Source of the DNA: Vicinamibacterales bacterium
Lineage (GTDB): Bacteria; Acidobacteriota; Vicinamibacteria; Vicinamibacterales; CAVVIG01
Direction of reading: 5' to 3'
Length of the DNA stretch: 36,343 bases
Assembly (NCBI GenBank): GCA_025450765.1
Contig: JANWLS010000158.1
Span: forward strand, 1-36,343
Part shown: positions 21,100 to 26,573 of the stretch, piece by piece
Layout of the letters: every line of letters starts with the position of its first letter
Position numbering within the stretch: the stretch's first letter is position 1
Position numbers and translations under genes: made by a program
Notes under the pieces: generated by a model
What the model saw: only the letters and a program-made list of their open reading frames with translations
Database searches by the model: none
Told to the model about the DNA's origin: nothing

Positions 21100-21128
21100 A
21101 CTATACGCAAAGGAAAGGCGAAAGGCAA
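21100..21128 (-). promoter_or_regulatory. candidate lexA sigma70-type promoter
   Basis: On minus strand TTGCCT (21123-21128), 17 nt, TATAGT (21100-21105). Confidence 0.5.
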
Positions 21129-21284
21129 GGACGCGGATAACTATTCCTCAACTGGAACATGAACTGGCCCAAGGAGACGGTCGCGCAGTGGGCGTCCATC
21201 GATACGAATTGATCCCCTATCTGCACGTCGAGGCCGATCCGGACGCCGCAGCTGAGTTCAAGATTGAGCGGTTTGCGGGCTTAC

Positions 21285-21965
21285 CTAAAACCCCTGGACG
21301 TACCCCCACACGGCAGCAGCGGCGACAAGAAACAGGAATACCTGCAGAAGAACGGCGCGACGCCTCACGTCGCGCCGCCTTTGCGGCGCGACCCAGGCCG
21401 CGAGCGCCACCCCAGCGAGTCCCGCAACAAGCAGCGCCCATCCGAGGGCGTGGTTAGCTCGATACCAGATGGGCTCCGAACTCATCGAATACGCTGTTCG
21501 GTATCCGTATACCCCGTTAGGTGGGATGGCTCGGAAGAGCAGTGGTAGGGCCAGCCCAATTCCGCTTACAGGCACCAGCCAGGTGAGCCAGGCATTCAGC
21601 CAGTCAAGTCGCGGAGCCCGCGTTGGACGTTGGCCTGCCGATTGTTTTGCGATCTGGCGATAGCACCACGTTACGAGGAGTGCAGCGACGCAGAAGCCCG
21701 ATTGCTCCAAAACACCGACGCCGGCCACGATGCCGTGCCTGGATGCGATCGCGAATCCGCCGAGTGCGGCGCCCGCCGCTCCAGCCACCAACATCGCCCA
21801 GCCGAGAAAGCGGTTCACGTCGTACCACAGCTCCGGGGAGCTGAGTACCTCTCTCGTTCGATAACCATAGAGATCGTTCGGTGGTACTCGTTCGAGTATC
21901 AGAGGGATAGAAAACACGATGACGACCACTGGAAGGATGAGAGCGGAGACTGTGTTTAGCATCAT
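21285..21965 (-). CDS. SdpI-family membrane protein (putative immunity protein)
   Basis: Two repeats PLILERVPPNDLYGYRTREVLSSPELWYDVNRFLGWAM and PLLFRAIPPNGVYGYRTAYSMSSEPIWYRANHALGWALL, characteristic of SdpI-type proteins; start overlaps upstream stop (TGATG). Confidence 0.85.
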   Translation of the reverse strand: MMLNTVSALILPVVVIVFSIPLILERVPPNDLYGYRTREVLSSPELWYDVNRFLGWAMLVAGAAGAALGGFAIASRHGIVAGVGVLEQSGFCVAALLVTWCYRQIAKQSAGQRPTRAPRLDWLNAWLTWLVPVSGIGLALPLLFRAIPPNGVYGYRTAYSMSSEPIWYRANHALGWALLVAGLAGVALAAWVAPQRRRDVRRRAVLLQVFLFLVAAAAVWGYVQGF

Positions 21966-22942
21966 CAACCTACCCAATCAGCGTCTCGTGCACTTGAAAC
22001 GAGGGCTGAATCGCCGAGCGGTGGATAACCTCGCAGAGGTGCCACTTTTTGCCAATTCGGTTGAAACGCGTGGGACCAAGGCCTCAGGTACAAGATGAGA
22101 GCTCCGGACATCACTACTCCGAAGCTGACAAGCCCCTGACAAATGGCTATTAGTGAGTGAAATGCGATTCCAGCGATCAGCAAGTACTTCCATCTGCGCG
22201 CCGGCATGAACAGTGCCATGGCCAATAGAATCTCAATCGCAATCGCTCCCCACGTCATAAGGGCAACACCGGGCCCGCTCTTGACTAGGAAGCGTACAAG
22301 CGGGCTGAGCCAACCGGAGGTGCCAAATACTGGATCCGTGAGCCAATAGTACAGAGCCGTTCCGTCACGCCATTCAGGCACACCGAATTTTGCAACAGCC
22401 GAATTGAAGTAAATGCCGGCAACCTGCAAGCGAATTGCCCATATGCATGACACAGCGACCACGAACTTTAGAGAGTCGGCCAACCGTCCCGTGCGTGCAA
22501 TCGGTGTTCCCCAATGCCAGCGACGAGAATCCGTCAGGGTCACGGGAATGAGGAAGAGAGCCAAAAGTGCAGCAATCTGGTCGCCGCCATCCAAAACGAT
22601 CGCTGAGGACTGAAAGCTAAAAGCGATCCACCAATGAAGCGTACCCGTAAAGCGCGGGCGATAGCCTGATGCAACTACGGCCAGAGCCACAACTGCGAGC
22701 CACCGAGCGAGATCTAAATGGTGATTAGTTGCCAAGCAAAACAATCCGAACTTACCTACGCCTTCGCAGTAAGGTACCTCAGAAATCCCGGCAGCGGGTC
22801 TAAATAGGGTGCTTGGCCTGTTGAAGATTAGCGTGCTTGCCGTGCCGAGTGCTAGGACAGTCCGAGCCGCCCCGTAAACATTTGTCCAGGGAGTCAGCCT
22901 GCGCTCACGCCGAATGGCGAAGCGACCCATGCGCGCTAGCAT
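21965..22942 (-). CDS. SdpB-like HTTM-type multi-pass membrane protein
   Basis: MLARMGRFAIRRERRLTPWTNVYGAARTVLALGTASTLIFNRPSTLF..., many TM segments, FNSAVAKFGVPEWRDGTALYYWLTDPVFG; ATGCTAG overlap with upstream ORF. Confidence 0.75.
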   Translation of the reverse strand: MLARMGRFAIRRERRLTPWTNVYGAARTVLALGTASTLIFNRPSTLFRPAAGISEVPYCEGVGKFGLFCLATNHHLDLARWLAVVALAVVASGYRPRFTGTLHWWIAFSFQSSAIVLDGGDQIAALLALFLIPVTLTDSRRWHWGTPIARTGRLADSLKFVVAVSCIWAIRLQVAGIYFNSAVAKFGVPEWRDGTALYYWLTDPVFGTSGWLSPLVRFLVKSGPGVALMTWGAIAIEILLAMALFMPARRWKYLLIAGIAFHSLIAICQGLVSFGVVMSGALILYLRPWSHAFQPNWQKVAPLRGYPPLGDSALVSSARDADWVG

Positions 22943-23490
22943 TGACTCCTCAGCTCTACGATGCGAGCCGGCATCCGCATGGAATTGTTGAACGACCGCC
23001 AAGCCCAGGGGAGAGGGGGCTGCCGAACAAACGCTATCTCGCCACACAACGTGGGATTTGGCGAGACGTTCCGGATTGTCATCGTTATGTGCTGGCGCGC
23101 CAAACAACTGAATACAGAGTCACCGCAGATGGCCCATTCGGACGGCCCCTGCAAGTTCGCCTGCAACAGTCCAGCTTCGACTCCTTGAGCACGAGCGCGT
23201 CTATTCAACCCAAAGAGGTTGGAGGGCAGAGAATCGGGAGCCAGCGAAACATCCCGCCAGTTCTCGCCCACCTGTTTATACAGATACAATCTGTCGTCGC
23301 GAGGGCTTTTCGTAAAGAATGCCCACCCCTGTGGCGCCCACATTTCGATGTCCATTTCGTGCTCATAGGGTAGGTGAAGCACGTTGAATGGTAGGGCCGA
23401 GTGTACGATGTAGACGCAGACGACGACCCAGACGGCTGTCGTGACGCAAATCGCAACGCCAACTATTCTCGCTCGGCCCAACATTGCCAA
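22936..23490 (-). CDS. SdpA-like antimicrobial peptide system protein
   Basis: N-terminal TM then MWAPQGWAFFTKSPRDDRLYLYK...LFGLNRRARAQGVEAG; lies directly upstream of the SdpB-like gene. TTG 23490 or ATG 23484 start. Confidence 0.7.
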   Translation of the reverse strand: MAMLGRARIVGVAICVTTAVWVVVCVYIVHSALPFNVLHLPYEHEMDIEMWAPQGWAFFTKSPRDDRLYLYKQVGENWRDVSLAPDSLPSNLFGLNRRARAQGVEAGLLQANLQGPSEWAICGDSVFSCLARQHITMTIRNVSPNPTLCGEIAFVRQPPLPWAWRSFNNSMRMPARIVELRSQC

Positions 23491-23541
23491 GAACCTGTCG
23501 AGTGAAGCGTACCGGGATCGTCGGAGACCGAATTTGTTGAA

Positions 23542-24435
23542 TCAGGCCACCGCAGCCTGGGCATAGTACTGCGCTTCGAATTCGGCTGGCGGGATGTCGC
23601 CGATCGGTCCCAGCAGCCGACGCATATTGAACCAATCCACCCACGCGAGCGTGGCGAACTCCACGGCCTCAAGCGAGCGCCACGGCCCCTTCCGTCGAAT
23701 GACCTCCGTCTTGAACAGCCCGATCACCGACTCGGCGAGGGCATTGTCGTAGGCGTCGCCTTGGCTTCCCACCGACGGCGCAATGCCAGCGTCCGCGAGA
23801 CGGTCGCTGTACCGCATCGAGAGGTACTGCGTGCCGCGGTCGCTGTGATGGACGAGCCCGGTGAGGGCGTCGCCACGCCGAGCGTGGATGGCCTGCTCGA
23901 GCGCATCGAGCACGAAGTCCGTGCGCATTGACGCGGAAACGCGCCAGCCGACGATCCGGCGAGCGAATACGTCGATGACGAAGGCGACGTAGACGAACCC
24001 ATTCCAGGTCGCCACGTACGTGAAGTCCGACACCCAGAGCTGATTCGGCCGCGTCGCGACGAACTGCCGATCCACGAGATCAGCTGGCCGGCCCCCGTCG
24101 GCGGCGTGGGTCGTGATGACCCAGGCCCGTCCGCGGACGGCGCCCGCCAAGCCCATGGCCCGCATCAGGCGCCCGACGGTACAGCGCGCCGCGCGGATCC
24201 CCTCGCGCCGGAGCTGCTTCCACACCTTACGAGGGCCGTACACCTGGTGGTGCTCGTTGTAGACGCGCTGAATCTCGACGCGCAGCCGGTCATCGCGGTG
24301 TGCGCGCGCCGAGCGACGCGCGGGGTCAGCCTGATGCTGCCGATGGCGGTGATACGTCGACGGGGCGATCGGCAACACGCGGCAGATCGACTCGACCCCG
24401 AACCGGTCCCGATGGGCGTCGATGTACGACACCAT
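23542..24435 (-). CDS. IS3-family transposase OrfB (DDE integrase domain)
   Basis: NQLWVSDFTYVATWNGFVYVAFVIDVFARRIVGW; LVHHSDRGTQYLSMRY; DNALAESVIGLFKTEV. Open frame extends to 24675 in -1 phase relative to OrfA, compatible with frameshift expression. Confidence 0.95.
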   Translation of the reverse strand: MVSYIDAHRDRFGVESICRVLPIAPSTYHRHRQHQADPARRSARAHRDDRLRVEIQRVYNEHHQVYGPRKVWKQLRREGIRAARCTVGRLMRAMGLAGAVRGRAWVITTHAADGGRPADLVDRQFVATRPNQLWVSDFTYVATWNGFVYVAFVIDVFARRIVGWRVSASMRTDFVLDALEQAIHARRGDALTGLVHHSDRGTQYLSMRYSDRLADAGIAPSVGSQGDAYDNALAESVIGLFKTEVIRRKGPWRSLEAVEFATLAWVDWFNMRRLLGPIGDIPPAEFEAQYYAQAAVA

Positions 24436-24440
24436 CGTGG

Positions 24441-24770
24441 TTATTTGCTCCGGCGGTCGAGCGCCGCCTGAGCGAAATACGCGGACGCTGTTTTCAGAAT
24501 CTCGTTCGTCCGCTTCAACTCGCGATTCTCGCGCTCCAGCACCGTCAGCCGCTGGCGCTCGCCCGTCGTCAAGCCGGGGCGCTGGCCGGTATCGCGCTCC
24601 GCTTGACGCACCCACTTCCGCAATGTCTCGGCCGTGGTCCCCATCTTCGATGCGACGGACTGCAACGCCGCCCACTCCGATGGCTGCGCCGGGCGCTGCT
24701 CCATCACCAGCCGAATGGCGCGCTCACGCACCTCCGGCGAAAACCGACTCGGACGTCCCATAGACCCCAT
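24441..24770 (-). CDS. IS3-family transposase OrfA (HTH)
   Basis: RPSRFSPEVRERAIRLVMEQ...KMGTTAETLRKWVRQAERD...ERENRELKRTNEILKTASAYFAQAALDRR. Confidence 0.93.
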   Translation of the reverse strand: MGSMGRPSRFSPEVRERAIRLVMEQRPAQPSEWAALQSVASKMGTTAETLRKWVRQAERDTGQRPGLTTGERQRLTVLERENRELKRTNEILKTASAYFAQAALDRRSK

Positions 24771-24816
24771 CCTCTCAAGAAATGAGGTCTCCGAAAAACC
24801 CGGTACGCTTCAGAGC

Positions 24817-25464
24817 TTAGGGTTGCACCAACTTAAGGCGAGACGTCAGCAGCGCGACATATTCCTCCTGCTGGAGCCGATTGCTGTCGTCGGTCTTGAG
24901 AACTGGGCTGAGAATCGGCTTGTACACAGCGGCCGCATAGTATACGAACTCGTACGCTACAAGCGCGAAAGCGGCGACGGCCGCGGCAGCGATGAACAAT
25001 ACCTCGCAGTCTGGTCCAACGCTTGCCGCATTCGTTCTAAAGACTGACGGCCCAGCTTCTTGGGTGACCAAGGAGACTAGCTCCCTGGTCGCTCGCTCTA
25101 AGGTGGTCTGAACAACCAAGGGATTTCCACTTTGCATACCTGCAGCAAAGCTGTTAAAAAACAACGGTTGGGCTGCACGAATTCGCTTGATCACACGGTT
25201 CTCAAGCGCAATCGTTTGCGGGGAATGCAGCTGCGGTAAGAATCGCTGAATGGTTGGATCCTGCCAGACCTCGGGTAGCAAGCTGGCGACAGTGCCCGTG
25301 CCGAAGTAAATACCACGAACGAGTTCCTCGCCGTTGAACTGCCGGTGAGTTCGAGACGCGCGATATTGCCCCAGTGTGCTGTTGAAGGCGAAGCAGGTGG
25401 GACAAGCGATAATTACGCAGACGAGACCAAGAGCAAAGCCGCGCAGCGGACGGAAGCTTCTCAT
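24817..25464 (-). CDS. SdpC-like antimicrobial peptide precursor
   Basis: ATG 25464 preceded by GGAGG; signal-like FALGLVCVIIACPTCFA; FNGEELVRGIYFGTGTVASLLPEVW; C-terminal hydrophobic core CEVLFIAAAAVAAFALVAYEFVYYAAAVY; in operon order with SdpA/B/I-like genes. Confidence 0.68.
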   Translation of the reverse strand: MRSFRPLRGFALGLVCVIIACPTCFAFNSTLGQYRASRTHRQFNGEELVRGIYFGTGTVASLLPEVWQDPTIQRFLPQLHSPQTIALENRVIKRIRAAQPLFFNSFAAGMQSGNPLVVQTTLERATRELVSLVTQEAGPSVFRTNAASVGPDCEVLFIAAAAVAAFALVAYEFVYYAAAVYKPILSPVLKTDDSNRLQQEEYVALLTSRLKLVQP

Positions 25465-25607: not shown

Positions 25608-26573
25608 TTGAGCAGGGTCTTCACCGTGCGGATCCCTTCAGTGTTGCCCTCGGCAGCCTCCTTCGCCTTCGACATCGTCGGCTTCGGGTCGACGAGCGTC
25701 GATCTGTTTGCCGTGCTCGACGCGTATCCGCCGAACGGCTCGAAGCAGCGCCTGCGTCAGCACCTCCGGCTGCCGGGCGGATCGACCGCAACGGCGCTCG
25801 TTGGATGCCAGCGCCTGGGTTGGCGCACGCGCTTCGTCGGCAGGCTGGGCGGCGATGACGAGGGACGGCTCGTGCGGGAGAGCCTGATCGCGGAAGGCGT
25901 AGGCGTGCACGCGCATGTGGTGCCCGGGGCGCGCAACCAGTTCGCGATCATCCTCGTCGATCGAGAGAGCGGCGAGCGGACGGTACTCTGGGATCGTGAT
26001 GCAGCGCTCGACGGGTCGCCGGAGGCGATCGAGCGGGAGGCGCTCGTCTCAGGCCGCATCCTCCTCGTCGACGCCGGCGATGTGCCGTCGGCGACCGCCG
26101 CCGCTGCAGCGGCCCGTCGTCACGGTGTCGTGACCGCGATCGACATCGAACAAGCAGGCCCGGGGACGACGGAGTTGCTGCGTGAGATCGATCTGCTGGT
26201 CGTTGCTGAGACGTTCCCGTCGGCCATCACCGGGAAGGCTGAGACCGGTGCCGCGCTCCATGCGCTCGCAGCCGAGCTGAAGCCCGCGCTCGCGTGCGTC
26301 ACGCTCGGCGCCGCGGGGAGCCTCGCCATCTGTCAGGGCCGCGAAATCCGGACGCCCGGTTTCCCGGTCCGCTGCACCGACACCACCGGTGCGGGCGACG
26401 CCTTCCGCGCCGGCCTGCTCTCGGCCTGGCTGGCTCAGCCCGATGCGGATGTCGCGGATCTGCTGCGCCGCGCGAACGCGGTGGCCGCCCTCAACTGCCG
26501 GGCGCTCGGTGCGTGGGCAGGACTTCCAACGGCCTCGGAGATCGAGCACTTCCTGGCCGCAGAAGGCACGTAA
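25608..26573 (+). CDS. PfkB-family carbohydrate kinase
   Basis: FDIVGFGSTSVDLFAVL, GGSTATALVGCQRLGWRTRFVGRLGGDDEGR, TDTTGAGDAFRAGLLSAWL; TTG 25608 or GTG 25626 start. Confidence 0.92.
   Translation: MSRVFTVRIPSVLPSAASFAFDIVGFGSTSVDLFAVLDAYPPNGSKQRLRQHLRLPGGSTATALVGCQRLGWRTRFVGRLGGDDEGRLVRESLIAEGVGVHAHVVPGARNQFAIILVDRESGERTVLWDRDAALDGSPEAIEREALVSGRILLVDAGDVPSATAAAAAARRHGVVTAIDIEQAGPGTTELLREIDLLVVAETFPSAITGKAETGAALHALAAELKPALACVTLGAAGSLAICQGREIRTPGFPVRCTDTTGAGDAFRAGLLSAWLAQPDADVADLLRRANAVAALNCRALGAWAGLPTASEIEHFLAAEGT

What the first reader, a model, noticed from the sequence alone, without database searches (positions are those of the whole stretch)
21285..25464. Apparent SdpABC/SdpI-type antimicrobial peptide operon in a high-GC, probably non-Firmicute genome
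Seen: on the minus strand, in order, a signal-peptide protein with FNGEELVRGIYFGTGTVASLLPEVW and a C-terminal hydrophobic core, an IS element, a one-TM protein with PQGWAFFTKSPR, an HTTM-like polytopic protein, and a two-repeat YGYRT protein. The last three ORFs have overlapping stop/start codons (ATGCTAG and TGATG). Established: in Bacillus subtilis sdpABC makes and matures the SDP cannibalism toxin and SdpI gives immunity. Inference: this is a diverged, probably horizontally acquired sdpC-A-B-I locus, in an A/T-richer island between lexA and pfkB. Gene order differs from B. subtilis (sdpABC plus sdpIR) and no ArsR-type SdpR is visible here.
Basis: partly seen in the sequence, partly recalled or inferred. 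Interest (0 to 1): 0.88.

Follow-up and report, generated by a model that had tools for sequence, protein, structure and literature searches.

The report
SDP-type toxin operon in an acidobacterium
A soil-type bacterium, probably an acidobacterium, carries a complete and apparently imported set of genes for a peptide that kills other bacteria, of the kind Bacillus subtilis uses against its siblings, together with the gene that should protect the producer; such sets turn out to be widespread, so this is a new member of a known kind.

Summary
On the minus strand lie sdpC (25464-24817), an intact IS3 element (24812-23503), then overlapping sdpA (23484-22936), sdpB (22942-21965) and sdpI (21965-21285). 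SdpA, SdpB and SdpI pass curated cut-offs; SdpC matches its model at E 1.5e-24 but falls below the cut-off, as do most non-Bacillota SdpC tested. The 4.5-kb low-GC island splits lexA and pfkB, direct neighbours in many relatives; no genus, family or order relative searched has sdpB. The host is most likely a vicinamibacterial acidobacterium. Across 87 related loci in seven or more phyla sdpC, A and B travel together; order C-A-B is the rule outside Bacillota, so neither order nor host is unusual. Less expected: (1) SdpC signal peptides end in a lipobox-like cysteine in 21 of 22 Gram-negative-type loci and 0 of 61 Bacillota/Actinomycetota loci (the window's case is ambiguous); (2) SdpI here is an internal duplication; (3) SdpB folds like vitamin-K gamma-carboxylase and keeps its catalytic lysine and histidine. 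The IS sits exactly between toxin and maturation genes and may have uncoupled them. Verdict: new member of a known kind.

The parts
24817..25464 (-). sdpC: SDP-type pro-toxin precursor, 215 aa (signal peptide, helical carrier domain, hydrophobic core, C-terminal helix)
   Evidence: TIGR04032 E 1.5e-24 (86.7 bits, cut-off 99.2); family profile E 3e-49; model: carrier 45-137 and helix 193-211 confident, core 152-190 pLDDT<50
25402..25464 (-). SdpC signal peptide with lipobox-like IIAC (Cys21); an SPase-I-like CFA|FN follows, so the cleavage type is ambiguous
24892..25008 (-). predicted mature toxin core, starting at Cys153 (position of the N-terminal Cys141 of B. subtilis SDP); C-terminal end inferred
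   Evidence: alignment of 83 SdpC; SDP = C141-S182 in PMC6818787
23503..24812 (-). IS3-family insertion sequence, 1310 bp, inserted in the sdpC-sdpA spacer; 3-bp target duplication GAG (+ strand) at 23500-23502 and 24813-24815
   Evidence: NF033516 309 bits; terminal repeats; single copy in assembly
22936..23484 (-). sdpA: one-TM maturation factor with PQGWAFFTKSPR
   Evidence: TIGR04034 133 bits, PF17418 1.4e-42; conserved residues kept
21965..22942 (-). sdpB: polytopic HTTM / gamma-carboxylase-fold maturation factor; overlaps sdpA (ATGCTAG)
   Evidence: TIGR04033 293 bits; AF2 pLDDT 89.5; ten best Foldseek hits all GGCX
21285..21965 (-). sdpI: probable immunity protein, two SdpI domains, 6 predicted TM; overlaps sdpB (TGATG)
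   Evidence: PF13630 twice above cut-off; halves 40% identical over 102 aa
20419..21024 (-). lexA, left flank of the insertion site (host gene)
   Evidence: Pfam LexA_DNA_bind + Peptidase_S24; 74-88% identical orthologues in relatives
21100..21128 (-). lexA promoter (TTGCCT-17-TATAGT), conserved as TTGACC...TATAGT in relatives; the island begins next to its -35 box
25635..26573 (+). pfkB-family kinase, right flank of the insertion site (host gene)
   Evidence: PF00294; adjacent to lexA in relatives

Best explanation
The locus is a horizontally acquired SDP-type antibacterial-peptide operon, sdpC-sdpA-sdpB-sdpI, in a vicinamibacterial acidobacterium, later interrupted between sdpC and sdpA by a host-type IS3 element. 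Inferred mechanism: SdpC is exported; its folded helical domain carries the hydrophobic segment that begins at Cys153; the membrane proteins SdpA and SdpB act on it so that the segment of about 35-42 residues is released; the freed peptide inserts into and de-energises membranes of sensitive cells; SdpI, translated from the same message as SdpB, protects the producer. Shown here: gene identities, order, coupling, co-occurrence, foreign origin and insertion history. Inferred from B. subtilis: processing, killing, immunity. Unknown: whether the operon is still expressed after the IS insertion.
For: Family hits. Co-occurrence: SdpA 86/87, SdpC 83/87. Family-conserved residues of SdpA and SdpB are kept almost throughout. 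SdpC shows the family layout with a single Cys ahead of an Ala/Val-rich core and a model with a confident carrier domain and an unresolved core. Overlapping sdpA-B-I genes. Occupied versus empty lexA-pfkB site. Low GC and GC3 of the sdp genes against host-like GC3 of the IS. SDP maturation, killing and SdpI immunity are established in B. subtilis (PMC6818787).
Against: SdpC is below the NCBIfam cut-off (86.7 vs 99.2), though so are 7 of 10 other SdpC proteins tested. The IS may have cut transcription of sdpA-B-I from the sdpC promoter; the promoter scan finds no more sites than chance. No regulator. Neither killing nor immunity was testable. Most non-Bacillota loci lack an adjacent SdpI, so immunity by SdpI rests on Pfam and coupling alone.
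Confidence: 0.82

Rival explanations
1. The operon is a disarmed relic: the IS3 insertion separated sdpC from its maturation and immunity genes, so no toxin is made and the locus is decaying.
For: IS3 element exactly in the sdpC-sdpA spacer with an intact target duplication, so a fairly recent event; no promoter beyond chance in the IS right end.
Against: All four sdp frames are intact. IS3 elements often provide outward promoters (general knowledge). The downstream overlapping genes would still be co-translated.
Confidence: 0.3
2. The last gene is not immunity: the SdpI-domain protein is a general membrane stress protein that happens to be coupled to sdpB.
For: SdpI-domain proteins occur in genomes of the same order that lack sdpB; other C-A-B loci mostly have other downstream genes. 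In B. subtilis the paralogous YIT toxin uses an unrelated immunity protein, YitQ (PMC6818787).
Against: The gene overlaps sdpB (TGATG), is the only SdpI-domain gene found in the assembly, has no close homologue in the relatives, and SdpI genes lie next to sdpB also in Spirosoma L078 and Acidimicrobiia L090.
Confidence: 0.12
3. Variant of the best explanation: in Gram-negative-type hosts pro-SdpC is a lipoprotein (lipobox Cys), held at a membrane and cut free there, unlike B. subtilis SdpC, which is secreted and then loses its signal sequence.
For: Lipobox-like Cys at the end of the signal h-region in 21/22 SdpC of Bacteroidota, Myxococcota, Deinococcota, Krumholzibacteriota, a proteobacterial MAG and the two acidobacterial loci together, versus 0/61 in Bacillota and Actinomycetota.
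Against: The rule was refined after first inspection (a stricter regex gave 11/22); sequences are not independent; in the window itself Pro follows the Cys and an SPase-I-like site is nearby; the other acidobacterial-phylum member (L017) lacks it.
Confidence: 0.45
4. Assembly artefact: the island belongs to another organism and was mis-binned or chimeric.
For: Draft genome, 82.6% complete, 4.6% contamination; foreign composition.
Against: The contig joins the island on both sides to lexA and pfkB, whose adjacency and promoter are conserved in relatives; the IS in the middle has host-like GC3.
Confidence: 0.04

Closest known systems
Bacillus subtilis sdpABC-sdpIR (SDP cannibalism toxin)
   Same: Homologues of SdpA, SdpB, SdpC and SdpI; pro-toxin layout; Cys at the start of the hydrophobic core
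   Different: Order C-A-B-I not A-B-C; no SdpR; SdpI is two tandem SdpI domains; lipobox-like signal; IS insertion; different phylum
B. subtilis yitPOM-yitQ (YIT toxin; PMC6818787)
   Same: Paralogous A, B and C proteins; toxin core sequence varies between members
   Different: Immunity protein YitQ is unrelated to SdpI
C-A-B loci of Streptomyces, Tsukamurella, Rhodococcus, Myxococcus, Calidithermus, Bacteroidota (among L009-L094)
   Same: Same order sdpC-sdpA-sdpB; SdpB about 28-54% identical to the window's; coupled downstream SdpI also in Spirosoma L078
   Different: Most lack an adjacent SdpI; a two-domain SdpI was not seen among them
Brevibacterium aurantiacum sdpABC-like genes (PMC5719810)
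   Same: Published occurrence outside Bacillota of an sdpABC-like cluster, also strain-variable
   Different: Actinomycete host; described there as weak homology
Human vitamin K-dependent gamma-carboxylase (GGCX)
   Same: Fold of the membrane domain and the catalytic Lys/His positions shared with SdpB
   Different: SdpB is much shorter and lacks the large lumenal part; no carboxylation is known in SDP

Membership tests
SdpABC antimicrobial-peptide system | SdpB family protein (TIGR04033) | tested here: met
   293 bits, cut-off 178.4
SdpABC antimicrobial-peptide system | SdpA family protein (TIGR04034, PF17418) | tested here: met
   133 bits, cut-off 53.1; PF17418 1.4e-42
SdpABC antimicrobial-peptide system | SdpC family pro-toxin (TIGR04032) | tested here: inconclusive
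   E 1.5e-24 over positions 5-171 of 172, but 86.7 bits is below the cut-off 99.2; 7 of 10 further SdpC, all non-Bacillota, also below; wider family profile E 3e-49
SdpABC antimicrobial-peptide system | the three genes adjacent in one operon | tested here: met
   same strand, sdpA-B overlap; sdpC lies next to sdpA, with only the IS and about 20 other bases between them
SdpABC antimicrobial-peptide system | export signal and hydrophobic C-terminal core in SdpC | tested here: met
SdpABC antimicrobial-peptide system | SdpA/SdpB-dependent release of an active peptide | not testable with these tools
   needs expression and mass spectrometry
SdpI immunity family | SdpI domain PF13630 | tested here: met
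   two copies, 50.2 and 47.1 bits, cut-off 28.2
SdpI immunity family | protects against the cognate toxin | not testable with these tools
   needs a protection assay
B. subtilis-type sdpABC-sdpIR locus | A-B-C order with an ArsR-type SdpR beside SdpI | tested here: not met
   order C-A-B-I, no regulator ORF in the island
IS3 family | transposase family, terminal repeats, short target duplication | tested here: met
   NF033516 309 bits; 14-bp perfect repeats; 3-bp duplication

The most novel reading that the evidence does not exclude
SDP systems of Gram-negative-type bacteria, this one included, are a distinct variant in which the pro-toxin is a lipoprotein displayed on a membrane and is matured with the help of a quinol-dependent enzyme, SdpB, which keeps the vitamin-K carboxylase fold and its catalytic lysine and histidine.
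Probability: 0.22. Interest if true: 0.7.

Novelty: new member of a known kind. Interest (0 to 1): 0.36.

Why it matters
It adds (probably) Acidobacteriota to the phyla with SDP-type toxins and shows the operon as cargo at a chromosomal insertion hotspot. The comparison set built to judge it gives two testable leads on an open question, how SDP is matured: the lipobox split between Gram-negative-type and other hosts, and the GGCX-type active-site residues conserved in SdpB.

Tried and rejected
Viral-contig scan for SdpB relatives: none, so a phage carrier is not supported. Plasmid search for the two-domain SdpI: only one weak partial hit, Thermus. PDB sequence and fold searches with SdpC: nothing significant. 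First alignment A1 was too diverse for a collection scan, replaced by A2. The + strand ORF overlapping 21131-21285 has no Pfam match. Recent transfer from a Bacillus-type locus rejected: the window lies outside the Bacillota clade (support 100) and is not sister to the other member from its phylum, L017. A first lipobox script had an anchor bug that left several sequences empty; one search replaces it. The idea that the SdpB lysine is special to SdpB was rejected: distant HTTM proteins mostly keep it too.

Full report
Observation. The minus strand of 25464-21285 carries sdpC, an IS3 element, sdpA, sdpB and sdpI as described. NCBIfam and Pfam identify SdpA (TIGR04034 133 bits; PF17418 1.4e-42), SdpB (TIGR04033 293 bits), SdpC (TIGR04032 E 1.5e-24, below the curated cut-off) and SdpI (PF13630, 1.5e-23). 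The sub-threshold SdpC score is common for the family outside Bacillota: of ten other SdpC proteins tested, seven, all from other phyla, also fall below, and a wider profile built from the loci gives E 3e-49.

Insertion sequence. The IS3 element runs 24812-23503 with perfect 14-bp terminal repeats and a CTC/GAG target duplication. It lies in the spacer after the sdpC stop (24817) and before the sdpA start (23484). None of the sdp frames is broken. Its GC3 (0.84) is host-like while the sdp genes have 0.56-0.67, so it most likely jumped in after the operon arrived (inference). It could have uncoupled sdpA-B-I from the sdpC promoter; no promoter stands out from chance. It is present once in the assembly.

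Host and island. The window is contig 158 of a 3.3-Mb draft genome. Its order contains two one-contig genomes of one genus, 7.5 and 6.5 Mb. The second fits Luteitalea sp. TBR-22, 6,468,984 bp, class Vicinamibacteria, Acidobacteriota (PMC8852301); that the first fits L. pratensis is from memory. The host assignment is therefore an inference. lexA and pfkB are divergent neighbours, tens to a few hundred bases apart, in at least ten relatives, and the lexA promoter is conserved next to the junction. In the window they are 4.6 kb apart. The sibling genome of the same genus has the empty site on one contig and a transposase beside pfkB on another; another family member has about 4.2 kb of other cargo there. 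The site thus looks like an integration hotspot. None of the 59 genus, family and order relatives has sdpB; in the wider phylum one other genome of 396 does, above cut-off.

Related loci. 77 named genome loci plus eight plasmid loci, the phylum relative L017 and the window were analysed. SdpA was found in 86 and SdpC in 83 of 87; of the four without SdpC, three are cut close upstream by a contig or record end. Order is A-B-C in Bacillota and in two Myxococcales loci, and C-A-B elsewhere. In a tree of SdpA+SdpB the window lies outside the Bacillota clade and groups loosely with Myxococcota, Krumholzibacteriota and Bacteroidota sequences on a long branch; L017 groups with Krumholzibacteriota (support 99), so the two members from this phylum do not share one recent origin. 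The profiles were seeded from sdp loci and the loci were found through SdpB, so the co-occurrence count speaks for SdpB-centred loci only.

SdpC. The conserved part is a helical domain (model residues 45-137, pLDDT about 90) plus a C-terminal helix (193-211); between them lies a hydrophobic segment of low confidence (152-190). In about 60% of 83 sequences the segment starts with a Cys, often after a Gly-rich stretch. B. subtilis SDP is C141-S182 (PMC6818787), so Cys153 here is the likely first residue of the toxin. An unexpected pattern: the signal peptide ends in a lipobox-like Cys in 21 of 22 loci of Gram-negative-type phyla and in none of 61 from Bacillota and Actinomycetota (Fisher 9e-19; stricter regex 11/22 against 0/61). 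The rule was tuned after a first look and the sequences are related, so the p-value is only indicative. In the window the motif is IIAC followed by PTCFAFN, which could equally be cut by signal peptidase I.

SdpI. It consists of two halves 40% identical over 102 residues, three predicted membrane helices each, both above the PF13630 cut-off. Shorter relatives occur in genomes of the order that have no sdpB. I did not see the two-domain form in the loci examined; how common it is elsewhere was not tested. Its overlap with sdpB makes immunity the likely role. SdpI immunity is established for B. subtilis SDP only, and the related YIT toxin uses an unrelated protein (PMC6818787).

SdpB. The family profile matches human GGCX at E 5.8e-7; the AF2 model (pLDDT 89.5) has GGCX structures as its ten best fold matches, probability 0.99-1.0, next best 0.23 (Foldseek E-values 1.7e-3 and weaker). 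In the sequence alignment SdpB K185 (86 of 87 sequences) falls on GGCX K218, the base that deprotonates vitamin K hydroquinone, and H143 on H160 (PMC12589487; residue numbers read off the printed alignment). The lysine is kept by distant HTTM proteins too, so it is a superfamily trait; the histidine is not kept in most of those alignments. That SdpB is a quinol-dependent enzyme is a hypothesis.

Verdict. It is a new member of a known and widespread kind. Interest lies in the side observations rather than in the presence of the operon.

Noticed in passing
window 21965-22942 (SdpB) and loci L017-L094: SdpB shares fold and active-site Lys/His positions with vitamin K-dependent gamma-carboxylase; a DUF393 protein (annotated in L010) and similar short ORFs, judged by eye, lie beside sdp genes in other loci (L011, L028, L032, L054, L059, L094).
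   Followed up: partly
L022, L024, L026, L044, L047 and other diderm SdpC: SdpC precursors in Gram-negative-type phyla carry lipobox-like signal peptides, those of Bacillota and Actinomycetota do not.
   Followed up: yes
L104 (G007:C14:165400-171400), L109, L102: The lexA-pfkB junction is an insertion hotspot in this family: a possible toxin-antitoxin pair plus large membrane proteins in G007, about 0.7 kb of extra DNA in G034, a transposase beside pfkB in G001.
   Followed up: partly
L017:2870-3646: C-terminal core of the SdpC in the phylum relative G077 gives a sub-threshold match to the daptide-type RiPP model NF041808 (17.1 bits, cut-off 25).
   Followed up: no
window 21131-21285: Short low-GC remnant between sdpI and lexA with an open + strand frame (ITIPQLEHELAQGDGRAVGVHRYELIPYLHVEADPDAAAEF) without a Pfam match; may be part of an earlier insertion.
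   Followed up: no
L016 (Curtobacterium plasmid pTCL) and L020: SdpC-like genes occur twice in one locus (either side of sdpA-B in L016, two upstream in L020), suggesting several toxins per maturation pair.
   Followed up: no
L012, L014, L016: CPBP-family intramembrane protease genes lie near sdp genes on three unrelated plasmids (Tsukamurella, Flammeovirga, Curtobacterium): possible immunity or processing partners.
   Followed up: no
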